Origin: Deferrisoma camini S3R1
GTDB lineage: Bacteria > Desulfobacterota > Deferrisomatia > Deferrisomatales > Deferrisomataceae
Length of the DNA: 64,000 bases
NCBI RefSeq assembly: GCF_000526155.1
Contig: NZ_JAFN01000001.1
Span: forward strand, 2,319,014 to 2,383,013
Reading direction: 5' to 3'
Under the pieces are notes generated by a model. It had not been told where the DNA came from. It searched no databases and saw only the letters and a list, made by a program, of their open reading frames with translations. Below are positions 41,822 through 45,931 of this stretch, in pieces. The translations under genes and the position numbers were made by a program. The stretch's first letter is position 1. Each line of letters starts with the position of its first letter.

Positions 41822-42796
41822 GTGGGCCCGTCCGCGCCGCTTCGCCGCCACGCCTTCGTCCTGGGGCTCGCGGCCGTGACGGCCCTGGTGCTGTGGAACC
41901 CCGGGGGGCTGCCCCAGACCCTGGGCCTGTGGCTCAAGGCCCACCGGGCCCCGGAGGCGGTGATCGCTGCGATCTTCCTGCTGTCGGGGCTGCGGCTGTC
42001 CGTGCGCTCCGCCCTGGCCGGGGCGGCCGACCTGCCGGTGGTGGCCCTGGGGTTCGCGGGGATCTTCGTCGTCTCGCCCCTGCTGGCCCTGGGGTTCTCG
42101 GCCCTTCCCCTGGCCCCAGGCCTGGTGGTGGGGCTCTTCCTGGTCGCCTCGATGCCAACCACCCTGACCACGGGGGTGGTCATGACCGCGGCCGCCGGGG
42201 GAAACGAGGCCACCGCCCTGGTGATCACCCTGGGGGCCAACGCCCTGGCCGTGGCGGCCGTGCCGGTGGTTCTGCCGTGGCTCCTGGGCACGGCCCGGGC
42301 CGTACCGCCCGACCTGTTCGACCGGGGGGCCATGGCGGCCCGGATCGCCGGCCTGGTGCTGGTTCCCCTCGCCGTGGGGATGGCCATCCGCAGCCGGGCT
42401 CCGGAGGCGTTCACCCGGGCCGGACCGGGGCTCAGGCGGGCCAGCCTGGGGCTCGTGCTCACCATCGTGGGCATCGCCGTGGCGGGCTCGCGGACCACGT
42501 TGCTGGGCCACGCCGGCGATCTGGCCGTGGCCGTGGGCCTTTCGGCCGCGTTCCACGCAACGGTGCTTGCCTGCCTGTTCGGCCTGGTGTTTCTGGGCCG
42601 GATCGGGCCGGGCCGGAGGGAGGCCGCGATCTTCATGGGCGGCCAGAAGACCCTGCCCCTGGCCGTGCTCCTCCAGACCTCGCTGTTCCCCGGCCTCGGG
42701 CAGGCCCTTGTGGTGTGCGTGGTGCACCATCTGGTGCACCTGCTCATGGACGGCTACCTGGTGGGCCGCCTGTCGGGCCGGGGAGCGGCGGCGTAG
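41822..42796 (+). CDS. Bile acid:sodium symporter-like (SBF) membrane protein
   Basis: This membrane protein of 324 residues has about ten hydrophobic segments and belongs to the SBF-like/BASS family. Signatures include AAIFLLSGLRLSVRSAL, LFLVASMPTTLTTGVVMTAAAGGNEATALVITLGANALAV (core motif with substrate-site residues), and FMGGQKTLPLAVLLQTSLFP. Family members carry organic anions with sodium. GTG at 41822 lies 9 bases after the TolB-like gene, and the two are probably co-transcribed. Substrate unknown; the proximity to hgcA may be coincidental. Confidence 0.85.
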   Translation: MGPSAPLRRHAFVLGLAAVTALVLWNPGGLPQTLGLWLKAHRAPEAVIAAIFLLSGLRLSVRSALAGAADLPVVALGFAGIFVVSPLLALGFSALPLAPGLVVGLFLVASMPTTLTTGVVMTAAAGGNEATALVITLGANALAVAAVPVVLPWLLGTARAVPPDLFDRGAMAARIAGLVLVPLAVGMAIRSRAPEAFTRAGPGLRRASLGLVLTIVGIAVAGSRTTLLGHAGDLAVAVGLSAAFHATVLACLFGLVFLGRIGPGRREAAIFMGGQKTLPLAVLLQTSLFPGLGQALVVCVVHHLVHLLMDGYLVGRLSGRGAAA

Positions 42797-42908
42797 GGGT
42801 GGGGATGCCAGTGACGAACTCGAAAGTGCAGTTTCCCGGTAACCACAGGAAAACCCGGACATCTAAAATTCGACCGAGGACCGGCTCCACCCGCCGAGGG
42901 ACTTTCCC

Positions 42909-44120
42909 ATGACCGAGACCGACCCCTGCTGCTCCCCAGCCCCGCCTGGCGATTCCCTTCCCATGGCCGAGGCGTGCTGCCCCCCGCCGGGATCCACAGC
43001 CCTCGCGATGGCCGAGCCGTGCTGCGGGTCGGCCGCGGAGGCGGTGGGGCCACGATGGGCCGACCGGGAGCGTCCGGGCTACCGGATCTGGCCGTTCGTG
43101 GACGAATGGATCGAGACCCCGGTGGGCGATGTGCCCGTGGTGTCGACCCGCCTCGGCAAGGGGGACGTGCTCGGCCGATGGGCCATGCGCTGGGGTATCG
43201 GCCGCGACCGGTACCGAATCGCGCCGGGCCTGTACGCGGTGGGCCGGCCCACGCCGGACTCCCCGGTGGTGGTCACGGCCAACTACAAGATGACCTTCGA
43301 CCTGGTGCGGAAGGACCTCGGCGGGGTGAACGCGTGGATCCTGGTGCTCGAGACGTGGGGGATCAACGTGTGGTGCGCGGCCGGCAAGGGCACCTTCGGC
43401 ACCGACGAGCTCGTGGCCCGGGTCCGAAAGGCGGGCCTGGACCGGGTGGTGAGCCACCGCACCCTGGTCGTGCCCCAGCTCGGGGCCACCGGCGTGGCCG
43501 CCCACGAGGTGCGCCGCCGCTGCGGGTTCCGGGTGGTGTACGGGCCGGTGCGCAGCCGGGACCTGGCCGCGTTCCTGCGGGCCGGCATGAAGGCCTCGCC
43601 GAACATGCGCAGGGTCACGTTCTCCCTGTGGGAGCGGCTCGTGCTCACACCGGTGGAGCTGCGGGTGATCCTGATGCGGCCCAGCCTGGCCCTGGCCGCC
43701 CTGCTCCTGGTGCTGGGCGGCATCGGCCCGGGCGGCTACTCCCTGGCCGGCGCGCTGGTGCGGGGCGGGGCCGCGGTGGGCACCCTGGCCGCCGGGGTCC
43801 TGGCCGGGGCCGTGGCCGCCCCGGTGCTGCTCCCCTGGCTTCCGGGCCGGATGTTCGCGGTCAAGGGCGTGTGGACCGGGCTGGGGGCCGCGCTCGTGCT
43901 CGCGGCCCGGTTCGGGACCCGCCTCAACGGGTGGGGGCTCATGGCCCTGGTGCTCGCCGTGACGGCGGCCTCGTCCTACTGCGCCATGAACTTCACCGGG
44001 TCCACGCCGTTCACCTCGCCCTCGGGCGTGGAGGCGGAGATGCGCCGCGCCCTCCCCTGGCAGATCGGAGCGGCCGGCTTGGCCCTGGTGGCCTGGATGG
44101 TCTCGGCCTGGAGCCTTTAG
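42909..44120 (+). CDS. hgcA: Mercury methylation corrinoid protein HgcA
   Basis: HgcA carries a methyl-corrinoid that transfers a methyl group to Hg(II), giving methylmercury. The diagnostic cap-helix motif GINVWCAAGKGTFGT is present, with the cobalt-ligand Cys156. The flanking corrinoid-domain segments VVSTRLGKGDVLGRWAMRWGIGRDRYRIAPGLYAVG, VTANYKMTFDLVRKDLGG, VVSHRTLVVPQLGA and GVAAHEVRRRCGFRVVYGPVRSRDL all match. About five membrane helices make up the C-terminal 165 residues. The N-terminus is unusual: three vicinal Cys pairs (7-8, 23-24, 38-39) in repeated MAE-CC units. The ATG codons at 42963 and 43008 are alternative starts. hgcB follows, but only after a 313-base gap with a repeat. Confidence 0.95.
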   Translation: MTETDPCCSPAPPGDSLPMAEACCPPPGSTALAMAEPCCGSAAEAVGPRWADRERPGYRIWPFVDEWIETPVGDVPVVSTRLGKGDVLGRWAMRWGIGRDRYRIAPGLYAVGRPTPDSPVVVTANYKMTFDLVRKDLGGVNAWILVLETWGINVWCAAGKGTFGTDELVARVRKAGLDRVVSHRTLVVPQLGATGVAAHEVRRRCGFRVVYGPVRSRDLAAFLRAGMKASPNMRRVTFSLWERLVLTPVELRVILMRPSLALAALLLVLGGIGPGGYSLAGALVRGGAAVGTLAAGVLAGAVAAPVLLPWLPGRMFAVKGVWTGLGAALVLAARFGTRLNGWGLMALVLAVTAASSYCAMNFTGSTPFTSPSGVEAEMRRALPWQIGAAGLALVAWMVSAWSL

Positions 44121-44173
44121 ACCCGGCGGGAAACGGCCGCCTACCTGCCCAGCGGTCCGAAGGCCTCACCGTC

Positions 44174-44433
44174 TAGAGACTAGAAACTAGAAACTAGGGA
44201 CTAGGGGAACCGGGGATTTCGGACCGTTGGGCGGGCGCTTTCTCAGGCCCCATGCCCCCGAGACCGTAAGGTGACGCCAAAAAGGCGTGGTCACGCTTGG
44301 AATGCTGGGAGATCACAGAGGTTTTCAAGCCTTCTGGCATCCTAGCCTTCCAGCTTCCTAGCCTTTGAGCCTCCCAGCGGGCCGAAGGCCCCAGACCGAC
44401 GACCAACGACTGACGACCGGAGACCGAAGTCAC
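44174..44433. repeat. Dispersed repeat (reverse) between hgcA and hgcB
   Basis: Five heptads TAGAGAC, TAGAAAC, TAGAAAC, TAGGGAC, TAGGGGA lie at 44174-44208. CAGGCCCCATGCCCCCG at 44244-44260 is the right inverted repeat. Then, read on the minus strand, come about seven octads (GCTGGGAG, GCTCAAAG, GCTAGGAA, GCTGGAAG...), the hairpin GGGGCCTTCGGCCC, and five GGTCNNC-type heptads. It ends in GTGACTTC directly before the hgcB ATG. The left inverted repeat and most of the core are missing. Confidence 0.8.
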
Positions 44434-44727
44434 ATGGAAGGCTTCCGCTACCTCGACGGAGTGGCCACCCTGGAGCTGCACGCGGACCGGTGTGTGGGGT
44501 GCGGCCTGTGCGAGACCGTGTGCCCCCACGGCGTGCTGGCCGTGTCCGACGGCAAGGCCCGGATCACGGACCGGGACGCGTGCATGGAGTGCGGGGCCTG
44601 CGCCCGCAACTGCCCCGTGGAGGCGCTGAGCGTGAGCGCCGGTGTCGGGTGCGCCGGGGCCATCATCAAGAGCTGGCTCACCGGCGCGCCCCCCACCTGC
44701 GGGTGCGAGGGCGGCGGAGGCTGCTGA
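44434..44727 (+). CDS. hgcB: HgcB, ferredoxin partner of HgcA
   Basis: HgcB is the 2[4Fe-4S] ferredoxin thought to keep HgcA's corrinoid reduced during mercury methylation. The protein is 97 residues, with clusters CVGCGLCETVCP (20-31) and CMECGACARNCP (50-61). The HgcB-specific Cys73 is in VSAGVGCAGAIIKSWL, and the C-terminal vicinal-type cysteines are CGCEGGGGC (89-97). All features that separate HgcB from ordinary ferredoxins are present. ATG at 44434 directly follows a repeat-element end that supplies the leader, including CCGGAG about 11 bases upstream. Co-transcription with hgcA is possible but would have to read through the repeat. Confidence 0.94.
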   Translation: MEGFRYLDGVATLELHADRCVGCGLCETVCPHGVLAVSDGKARITDRDACMECGACARNCPVEALSVSAGVGCAGAIIKSWLTGAPPTCGCEGGGGC

Positions 44728-44749
44728 CCTCGGGCCCTCGGCGCTCCCC

Positions 44750-45931
44750 TCAGCTCTGCGTCCCGTACACCCCCAGGGCCGCGGCCACGGCCGCGCCCCG
44801 GTCCACCGGGGCCCCGGCGTCGGCCAGCGCCGCCTCCAGGGCCCCGAGGCACACCAGCACGTTTTGCCGCTTGGCCGCGTACCCCATGAGCCCGATCCGC
44901 CACACCCGGCCGGCGAACGCCCCCAAGCCGGCGCCGATCTCCAGGCTGTAGTCCTCCAGCAGCCGACGGCGCACCGCGGCCTCGTCCACCCCCTCGGGGG
45001 CGAACACCGCGTTGAGCTGGGGCAGCCGATGGGGCTCGTCCACCACGAACCCCAGGCCCATGGCCTCGAGCCCGGCCCGCAGGGCCCGATGGTGGAGGCG
45101 GTGGCGCCGCCACGCGTTCTCGATCCCTTCCTCCCGGAGCAGGGTCAGGGCCTCGTGCAGGGCGTACAGCCCGTTCACCGGCGCGGTGTGGTGGTAGGTG
45201 CGCTTGCCGTCGCCCCCCCAGTACCCCAGGACCAGGTTGAGGTCCAGGAACCAACTCTGCACCGGGGTCCTGCGGGACCGCAGCTTCTCGAGCGCCCGCT
45301 CCCCGAACGTCACCGGCGCCAGCCCGGGCACGCACGACAGGCACTTCTGGCTGCCACTGTACACCGCGTCGAGCCCCCACTCGTCCACCCGCACCGGCAT
45401 GCCGCCCAGGGAGGTGACCGTGTCCACGATGGTCAGGCATCCGTGATCCCGGGCGATCCGGGCCAAGGCCTGGGCGTCGGAGGCCGCGCCGGTGGAGGTC
45501 TCGGCGTGCACGAACGCCACGATCTTGGCCTCCGGATGCTGCCGGAGGGTCGCCTCCAGCTTGTCCGGGTCCACCGGCCGGCCCCACTCGTCGTCCACCA
45601 CCACGGCCCGGCCGCCGCACCGCTCCACGTTCTGGCGCATGCGCTCGCCGAACACGCCGTTGCGGCACACCACCACCGTGTCGCCCGGCTCCACCAGGTT
45701 CACGAAGCACGCCTCCATGCCGGCCGATCCCGGCGCGGACACGGCAAAGGTCACCTCGTTGCGGGTCTGGAACGCGTAGCGCAGCAGGTCCTTGAGCTCG
45801 TCCATCATCCGGACGAACTCGGGGTCCAGGTGGCCCACCGTGGGACGAGACAGGGCCTGGAGGACCCGGGGATGGATGTCGGAGGGGCCGGGCCCCATCA
45901 GGATCCGCTGGGGGGGATGGAACGAAGACAT
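44750..45931 (-). CDS. Alanine-glyoxylate / serine-pyruvate type aminotransferase
   Basis: This PLP enzyme of 393 residues belongs to the class V aminotransferase family of AGT/SPT. It has LMGPGPSDIHPRVLQALSRPTVGHLDPEF at the N-terminus, VSAPGSAGMEACFVNLVEPGD, HAETSTGAA, TIVDTVTSLGG with Asp170, and the Schiff-base Lys196 in YSGSQKCLS. It also has YHHTAPVNGLYALHEAL. Such enzymes convert glyoxylate plus alanine or serine to glycine. The upstream same-strand gene is a 4-hydroxy-2-oxoglutarate aldolase-like protein that would make glyoxylate. ATG at 45931; the leader includes the left end of a repeat element with TAGGAGGA as ribosome site. Confidence 0.9.
   Translation of the reverse strand: MSSFHPPQRILMGPGPSDIHPRVLQALSRPTVGHLDPEFVRMMDELKDLLRYAFQTRNEVTFAVSAPGSAGMEACFVNLVEPGDTVVVCRNGVFGERMRQNVERCGGRAVVVDDEWGRPVDPDKLEATLRQHPEAKIVAFVHAETSTGAASDAQALARIARDHGCLTIVDTVTSLGGMPVRVDEWGLDAVYSGSQKCLSCVPGLAPVTFGERALEKLRSRRTPVQSWFLDLNLVLGYWGGDGKRTYHHTAPVNGLYALHEALTLLREEGIENAWRRHRLHHRALRAGLEAMGLGFVVDEPHRLPQLNAVFAPEGVDEAAVRRRLLEDYSLEIGAGLGAFAGRVWRIGLMGYAAKRQNVLVCLGALEAALADAGAPVDRGAAVAAALGVYGTQS

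What the first reader, a model, noticed from the sequence alone, without database searches (positions are those of the whole stretch)
42909..44727. hgcA and hgcB: mercury methylation capacity
HgcA has the NVWCAAGK cap helix with Cys156 and the membrane domain; HgcB has both ferredoxin motifs, Cys73 and the C-terminal cysteines. Together these are the accepted markers of Hg(II) methylation.
Basis: partly seen in the sequence, partly recalled or inferred. Interest (0 to 1): 0.85.

Follow-up and report, generated by a model that had tools for sequence, protein, structure and literature searches.

The report
Mercury-methylation gene pair hgcA and hgcB
This bacterium carries an intact copy of the two known genes that turn mercury into toxic methylmercury; the pair is of a known kind, but the first protein also has a flexible front tail with three pairs of neighbouring cysteines that may pick up mercury, and that tail is worth testing.

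Summary
The finding is right. Window 42909-44120 (+) encodes HgcA and 44434-44727 (+) encodes HgcB; both pass NCBI's curated cut-offs (435 vs 275 and 130 vs 99 bits). HgcA Cys156 and HgcB Cys73 are invariant in alignments. The genome encodes CdhD/CdhE-type proteins separately. Ten of 11 other genomes of the order also have hgcA.

Not noticed before: HgcA begins with a disordered ~55-residue tail whose six cysteines form three vicinal CC pairs (shuffle p = 2e-4), all kept in genus mates. Of 101 homologues, 55 carry CC in this tail and about 20 have Cys followed by an in-frame TGA there. The selenocysteine 'CU' form is published (listed in PMC13188914); I found no description of the repeated CC tail, but the key paper (Haft and Gwadz 2023) could not be read. 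I infer a Hg(II)-capture arm. The genome also carries a merA locus. Methylation activity is predicted, not shown.

The parts
42909..44120 (+). hgcA, 403 aa, mercury-methylation corrinoid protein HgcA
   Evidence: NF040863 435.3 bits vs cut-off 275; start supported by conserved MTET-PCC / MTDTCC starts in genus and family
42909..43073 (+). N-terminal cysteine tail of HgcA (residues 1-55), outside the NF040863 model (which begins at residue 75), predicted disordered
   Evidence: pLDDT 51-60 for residues 1-50; 6 Cys, all in CC pairs, shuffle p = 2.35e-4; Cys 6/6 kept in two genus mates
42927..42932 (+). CC pair 1 (Cys7-Cys8)
   Evidence: sequence
42975..42980 (+). CC pair 2 (Cys23-Cys24)
   Evidence: sequence
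43020..43025 (+). CC pair 3 (Cys38-Cys39)
   Evidence: sequence
43221..43565 (+). corrinoid-binding domain (PF03599 match, residues 105-219)
   Evidence: PF03599 48.9 bits vs 24.8; Foldseek to CFeSP large subunit 4c1n, 2ycl, 2h9a, E 1e-8 to 1e-9
43365..43388 (+). cap helix NVWCAAGK (residues 153-160); Cys156 codon 43374-43376
   Evidence: N153 V154 W155 C156 G159 invariant in 66 HgcA; helix 154-160 in the model
43677..44114 (+). C-terminal transmembrane domain (residues 257-402; five helices in the model)
   Evidence: model helices 257-269, 279-310, 316-338, 341-360, 371-402; hydropathy
44121..44433 (+). hgcA-hgcB intergenic gap, mostly a dispersed, strongly folding intergenic repeat of this genome
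   Evidence: 46 matches in own genome, 72-94% identity; fold z = -4.4; nearly same in G001, shorter in G002
44434..44727 (+). hgcB, 97 aa, dicluster ferredoxin HgcB; Cys73 codon 44650-44652; C-terminal Cys89/91/97
   Evidence: NF040864 130 bits vs cut-off 99; alignment
41822..42796 (+). SBF-like (PF13593) membrane transporter gene just upstream of hgcA, same strand; possible but unproven partner
   Evidence: PF13593 144.8 bits; next to hgcA in both genus mates, not found in family/order relatives

Best explanation
The locus encodes a complete, vertically inherited HgcAB mercury-methylation pair. I propose that in this protein Hg(II) is captured not only by the HgcB tail cysteines (Cys89/91/97) but also by the flexible HgcA N-terminal tail with three vicinal CC pairs, which works as a second delivery arm. 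Shown here by sequence: identity of both genes, all known essential residues, fold, clade, tail and its conservation. Taken from published work on relatives: electron path, methyl donor, Co-S ligation. Inferred: that this pair is expressed and active, and that the CC tail binds Hg(II).
For: NF040863 and NF040864 over curated cut-offs, HgcAB-like fusion and CdhE models under theirs; single copies in the genome; C156 and C73 invariant; AlphaFold2 pLDDT 87.9 and best PDB matches 9a0b (HgcAB model, TMt 0.68, 49% identity) then CFeSP; HgcA clade apart from CdhE with 100/100 support, window with genus and family mates 100/99; hgcA also over the cut-off in 10 of 11 other genomes of the order. Tail: three CC pairs, shuffle p 2.35e-4; pooled over 92 tails 108 CC vs 18.8 expected, maximum of 2000 shuffles 32; Cys 5.9% in tails vs 0.9% in the core and no CC in the core; Cys kept 6/6 while other tail residues drop to 30/49 in G001; 21 homologues have a TGA stop directly after a Cys codon at this place, against 1 Cys before 44 TAA/TAG stops, which is what Cys/Sec exchange at a working chalcogen pair predicts; 'CU' in HgcA and 'GVGU' in HgcB are listed as predicted selenoprotein motifs in PMC13188914.
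Against: No activity or expression data. hgcA and hgcB are separated by 313 nt of repeat instead of the ~20-50 nt in several relatives, which could lower hgcB expression. Seven of 101 homologues have no Cys in the tail read and eleven have one, so the tail is not universally required, and some of those may be mis-called starts. The HgcB C-terminus lacks the adjacent CC of ND132. The 21 CU cases include one (L132) that I discount because its tail also has a plain CC, and no SECIS element was tested.
Confidence: 0.85

Rival explanations
1. The pair is a true HgcAB, but its normal job is a different methyl transfer or a thiol/metalloid-related reaction (for example coupled to arsenic), and mercury methylation is a side activity. 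The CC tail would then bind As(III), another soft metal, or take part in redox.
For: Native role of HgcAB is unsettled; hgcAB is often next to ars genes in other organisms and is not regarded as mercury resistance (PMC7438021, PMC7305189). This genome has a separate merA locus with MerP-like and MerT-like genes for Hg(II), so it does not need HgcAB for Hg(II) removal. An SBF-superfamily transporter lies directly upstream.
Against: No ars gene was recognised among the ten neighbouring genes scanned. The transporter is PF13593-type, not an identified ACR3, and its position is kept only within the genus. All residues known to be needed for Hg methylation are present.
Confidence: 0.2
2. A relic: the genes are intact but hgcB is poorly expressed because a folded repeat separates it from hgcA, so little or no methylmercury is made.
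For: 313-nt gap with z = -4.4 fold; no consensus promoter found in 42700-44800.
Against: Both ORFs are intact and conserved (HgcA 93% and HgcB 97% identical to G002, 62-locus), and G001 and G002 keep both genes with a gap of 318 and about 120 nt. The promoter scan covers sigma-70 consensus only.
Confidence: 0.07
3. The protein is a CdhD/CdhE-type corrinoid iron-sulfur protein of the acetyl-CoA pathway, not HgcA.
For: Shared PF03599 domain; the genome does use that pathway's proteins.
Against: PRK04165 (CdhE) 72.6 bits vs cut-off 306; only the C-terminal third of PF03599 is matched; tree separates it with 100/100 and branch length 4.7; genuine CdhE and CdhD are elsewhere in the genome.
Confidence: 0.005
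4. The CC tail is neutral low-complexity sequence that expands by slippage (MAE-x-CC units), without function.
For: Repeated MAEACC / MAEPCC units and different numbers of CC (3 or 4) within the genus; low pLDDT.
Against: Cys kept in preference to other residues; CC pairs recur across divergent HgcA lineages; interchange with Cys-TGA at the same place.
Confidence: 0.2

Closest known systems
HgcA/HgcB of Pseudodesulfovibrio mercurii ND132 (experimentally proven Hg methylator; PMC7305189, PMC11588087)
   Same: Corrinoid domain with cap-helix Cys (Cys93 there, Cys156 here), transmembrane domain, dicluster ferredoxin HgcB with Cys73 and C-terminal cysteines
   Different: Here three CC pairs in an extra N-terminal tail; HgcB ends C-x-C...C instead of adjacent CC; 313-nt gap between the genes. 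I did not have the ND132 sequence itself; numbering is from the papers.
Selenoprotein forms of HgcA ('CU') and HgcB ('GVGU') (Haft and Gwadz 2023, listed in PMC13188914; NF040863, NF040864)
   Same: Chalcogen pair ahead of the corrinoid domain; same place in the protein
   Different: The window protein uses Cys only (in-frame stop upstream is TAA), although the genome has selA; pairs are repeated three times
HgcAB-like fusion protein (NF043039, Pyrococcus-type)
   Same: Same corrinoid domain and ferredoxin (192.8 bits to HgcA)
   Different: Below cut-off 285; two separate genes here. PMC8261052 states that a fused-gene strain (P. furiosus) does not methylate Hg(II).
CFeSP large subunit / CdhE (PF03599; 2h9a, 4djd)
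   Same: C-terminal corrinoid-binding domain, ~25% identity
   Different: No cap-helix Cys, no membrane domain, has TIM-barrel and Fe-S domains; separate clade
MerT / MerA of mercury resistance
   Same: Works-like only: vicinal cysteines that pass Hg(II) from one thiol pair to the next
   Different: No sequence relationship to the HgcA tail is claimed

Membership tests
HgcA (NF040863) | Score over the curated equivalog cut-off | tested here: met
   435.3 bits vs 275, whole model 1-324/325
HgcA (NF040863) | Cap helix N-V/I-W-C-A-A/S-G-K with the corrinoid-ligating Cys | tested here: met
   NVWCAAGK, C156 invariant in 66 sequences
HgcA (NF040863) | Corrinoid-binding fold related to the CFeSP large subunit | tested here: met
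   PF03599; Foldseek 4c1n, 2ycl, 2h9a, 4djd
HgcA (NF040863) | C-terminal domain of five transmembrane helices | tested here: met
   five helices in the AlphaFold2 model and hydrophobic stretches from 249 to 362; the last model helix, 371-402, did not exceed the hydropathy threshold
HgcA (NF040863) | Falls in the HgcA clade, not CdhD/CdhE | tested here: met
   CdhE separated at 100/100; HgcA group 94/63 against one long-branched fusion-like row
HgcA (NF040863) | Hg(II) methylation activity | not testable with these tools
   needs a methylmercury assay
HgcB (NF040864) | Score over the curated equivalog cut-off | tested here: met
   130 bits vs 99; next best ferredoxin in the genome 42 bits
HgcB (NF040864) | Two CxxCxxCxxxC [4Fe-4S] motifs and Cys73 | tested here: met
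   invariant in nine HgcB
HgcB (NF040864) | At least one Cys in the C-terminal tail | tested here: met
   Cys89, 91, 97; not an adjacent CC
HgcAB-like fusion (NF043039) | Score over cut-off; single fused gene | tested here: not met
   192.8 vs 285; separate ORFs
CdhE / CFeSP large subunit | Score over the PRK04165 cut-off and full PF03599 length | tested here: not met
   72.6 vs 306; PF03599 positions 269-383 only
Selenoprotein HgcA | In-frame TGA at the second Cys of the tail | tested here: not met
   window has TGC-TGC pairs and a TAA stop upstream of the ORF

The most novel reading that the evidence does not exclude
HgcA proteins generally carry an N-terminal, disordered chalcogen arm (CC, C-Sec, or repeated CC as here) that captures Hg(II) and presents it to the methyl-corrinoid, and this arm lies outside the family model and outside some annotated gene starts. 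In a Pseudodesulfovibrio MAG (L107) the cap Cys is residue 114 after the TGA and a GTG lies at residue 22, so a start there would number it Cys93, the number used for strain ND132; the reference protein may therefore be annotated, and studied as a recombinant, without its arm.
Probability: 0.35. Interest if true: 0.7.

Novelty: new member of a known kind. Interest (0 to 1): 0.42.

Why it matters
Methylmercury is a neurotoxin made almost only by hgcAB carriers, and the gene pair is how producers are found in the environment; this adds a complete genome of a lineage in which the trait is nearly order-wide. How Hg(II) reaches the HgcA active site is an open question; a conserved, exchangeable CC/CU arm on HgcA would make it directly testable. 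The genome carries a merA locus too, so reduction and methylation of mercury could be compared in one organism.

Tried and rejected
CdhE identity: rejected by score and tree. HgcAB-like fusion: rejected by score. Selenocysteine in the window protein: looked for an upstream in-frame TGA; the stop is TAA. Sec in HgcA and Sec in HgcB going together: they did not coincide in these loci (CU tails 19 of 19 with Cys73; four Desulfotignum loci with GVGU have single-Cys tails). Upstream SBF-like gene as a conserved hgc partner: only genus-level. MerB: no match, but the control search was silent too, so absence is not shown. Two pattern searches for the intergenic repeat were badly chosen: the first had too short a gap before ATG and missed even the window copy, the second found only that copy; the DNA search is the one to use. 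One search with NF010391 was a wrong accession and is ignored. Rfam: nothing in the window. Papers: no text on a vicinal-Cys tail of HgcA in the library, but Haft and Gwadz 2023 and the ND132 mutagenesis paper are not held.

Full report
The observation. The window holds two intact genes on the + strand: 42909-44120 (403 aa) and 44434-44727 (97 aa). NCBIfam names them HgcA (NF040863, 435.3 bits, cut-off 275) and HgcB (NF040864, 130 bits, cut-off 99); the fusion model NF043039 and the CdhE model PRK04165 stay far below their cut-offs. HgcB has both cluster motifs, Cys73, and C-terminal Cys89, Cys91 and Cys97. The window is part of a single-contig genome of 4,236,551 bases, 98% complete, with one match over the cut-off for each gene.

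A maximum-likelihood tree of 50 HgcA, seven CdhE-type domains (one from this genome) and one fusion-like protein separates CdhE from the rest at 100/100 with a branch of 4.7; HgcA is one group at 94/63 (the fusion-like row is a long branch), and the window protein sits with G001, G002 and G003 of its genus and family at 100/99. That agrees with vertical inheritance. Of 11 other genomes of the order, 10 have hgcA over the cut-off, and 113 of 395 genomes sampled across the phylum do. The genome's own CdhE-like and CdhD-like proteins are at 3.03 Mb.

Fold. AlphaFold2 with the 66-row alignment gives mean pLDDT 87.9 and pTM 0.80: residues 1-50 at 51-60 (disordered), a corrinoid domain, a cap helix at 154-160, and a helical membrane domain. 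The best PDB matches are 9a0b, the HgcAB model of PMC7305189, then CFeSP structures. A sequence search of the PDB finds only CFeSP/CODH-ACS large subunits.

How it works. From published work on relatives: HgcB reduces the corrinoid, S-adenosylmethionine methylates it with a Co-S(Cys) bond in the methylated state, and the methyl goes to a thiol-bound Hg(II); the C-terminal cysteines of HgcB are proposed to carry Hg(II) (PMC11588087, PMC7305189). Every residue named there has its counterpart here. Activity in this organism is inferred.

The N-terminal tail. All six cysteines are in three vicinal pairs (3 or more pairs in 0.0235% of composition shuffles). In the two genus mates all six are kept (non-Cys positions 42/49 and 30/49), with a fourth pair in G002. 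Family members further off have two CC in the same region with little other similarity. Pooled over 92 homologues the tails hold 108 CC where shuffling gives 18.8 (maximum 32 of 2000 shuffles); cysteine is 5.9% of tail residues and 0.9% of the rest, where there is no CC at all. I note that the tails were delimited by me, partly using the position of the first CC to pick the Met, which favours tails with CC somewhat; the shuffles keep composition and length but not this choice.

Cys and TGA. In 21 of 101 homologues the HgcA reading frame opens directly after a TGA that follows a Cys codon, and is followed by G, P, A or similar (for example ...DAPC-TGA-GPKPDPEAGVHERPGY in L060); before TAA or TAG a Cys codon occurred once in 44. 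I discount one of the 21 (L132). This fits the published prediction of selenocysteine 'CU' in HgcA (PMC13188914, citing Haft and Gwadz 2023). I did not test for SECIS elements. The window protein is the all-Cys form; its upstream stop is TAA, although the genome encodes SelA (591.7 bits). Cys/Sec exchange at one place is a usual sign of a chemically working pair, so I infer a soft-metal ligand; Hg(II) is the obvious candidate in HgcA. In L107, titled Pseudodesulfovibrio, a GTG start at residue 22 after the TGA would number the cap Cys as 93, the number in the ND132 literature.

Surroundings. Upstream on the same strand lie a B12-dependent ribonucleotide reductase, a DUF493 protein, a TolB-like propeller and an SBF-like transporter that ends 112 nt before hgcA; downstream on the other strand are a class V aminotransferase, a DapA-like lyase, a spermidine-synthase-like protein and a DEAD helicase. 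This order is kept in G001 and G002 and, apart from hgcAB, not in the fetched pieces of family and order relatives, some of which are short. The 313-nt hgcA-hgcB gap consists largely of a repeat found at least 46 times in the genome, folds strongly (z -4.4), is nearly the same in G001 and shorter in G002. At about 2.66 Mb there is a MerA (541 bits, cut-off 454) with a C-terminal CC, a MerP-like protein (NF041115 95.8 vs 95; MerP model under cut-off) and a MerT-like protein (under cut-off). MerB was not found, but that search had no positive control.

Verdict. A sound call of a known, important system; membership of the HgcA and HgcB families is met on every testable feature. What may be new is the repeated CC arm, its breadth in the family and its exchange with Cys-TGA. 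The CU form is published; whether the CC form is described there I could not check.

Noticed in passing
window 44165-44432 (between hgcA and hgcB): A dispersed intergenic repeat: at least 46 matches of 72-94% identity in the same genome (513 first-look candidates, 40 scored), mosaic in extent, strongly folding; partly absent in genus mate G002.
   Followed up: partly
L162 and L164 (own genome 2650500-2662500): A mer-type locus: MerA over its curated cut-off with C-terminal CC, MerP-like and MerT-like proteins and a small thioredoxin-like protein with CC; so this genome encodes both Hg(II) reduction and Hg methylation.
   Followed up: partly
L147 and L148 (genome G007, order relative): Two different hgcA-hgcB pairs, each over the HgcA cut-off, in one genome assembly (contamination estimate 6%); G354 also has two hgcA. 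PMC8261052 states that no genome had been shown to have several copies.
   Followed up: partly
L107, near 6001 (Pseudodesulfovibrio MAG); also L118, L122: HgcA frame opens after Cys-TGA; a GTG at residue 22 would number the cap Cys as 93 as in the ND132 literature, so common gene starts may cut off a Sec-containing arm.
   Followed up: partly
L124, L133, L134, L135 (Desulfotignum): HgcB with TGA at the Cys73 position (GVGU) while the HgcA tail of the same loci has only single cysteines; HgcA-CU and HgcB-U did not coincide.
   Followed up: partly
L151 (genome G041, 2068284-2068967): HgcA match limited to model positions 1-223 inside a much longer open frame, with no hgcB found nearby: a possible fusion or altered membrane domain.
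   Followed up: no
window 41822-42796: SBF-like (PF13593) transporter 112 nt upstream of hgcA on the same strand, kept in the genus; possible co-transcription.
   Followed up: partly
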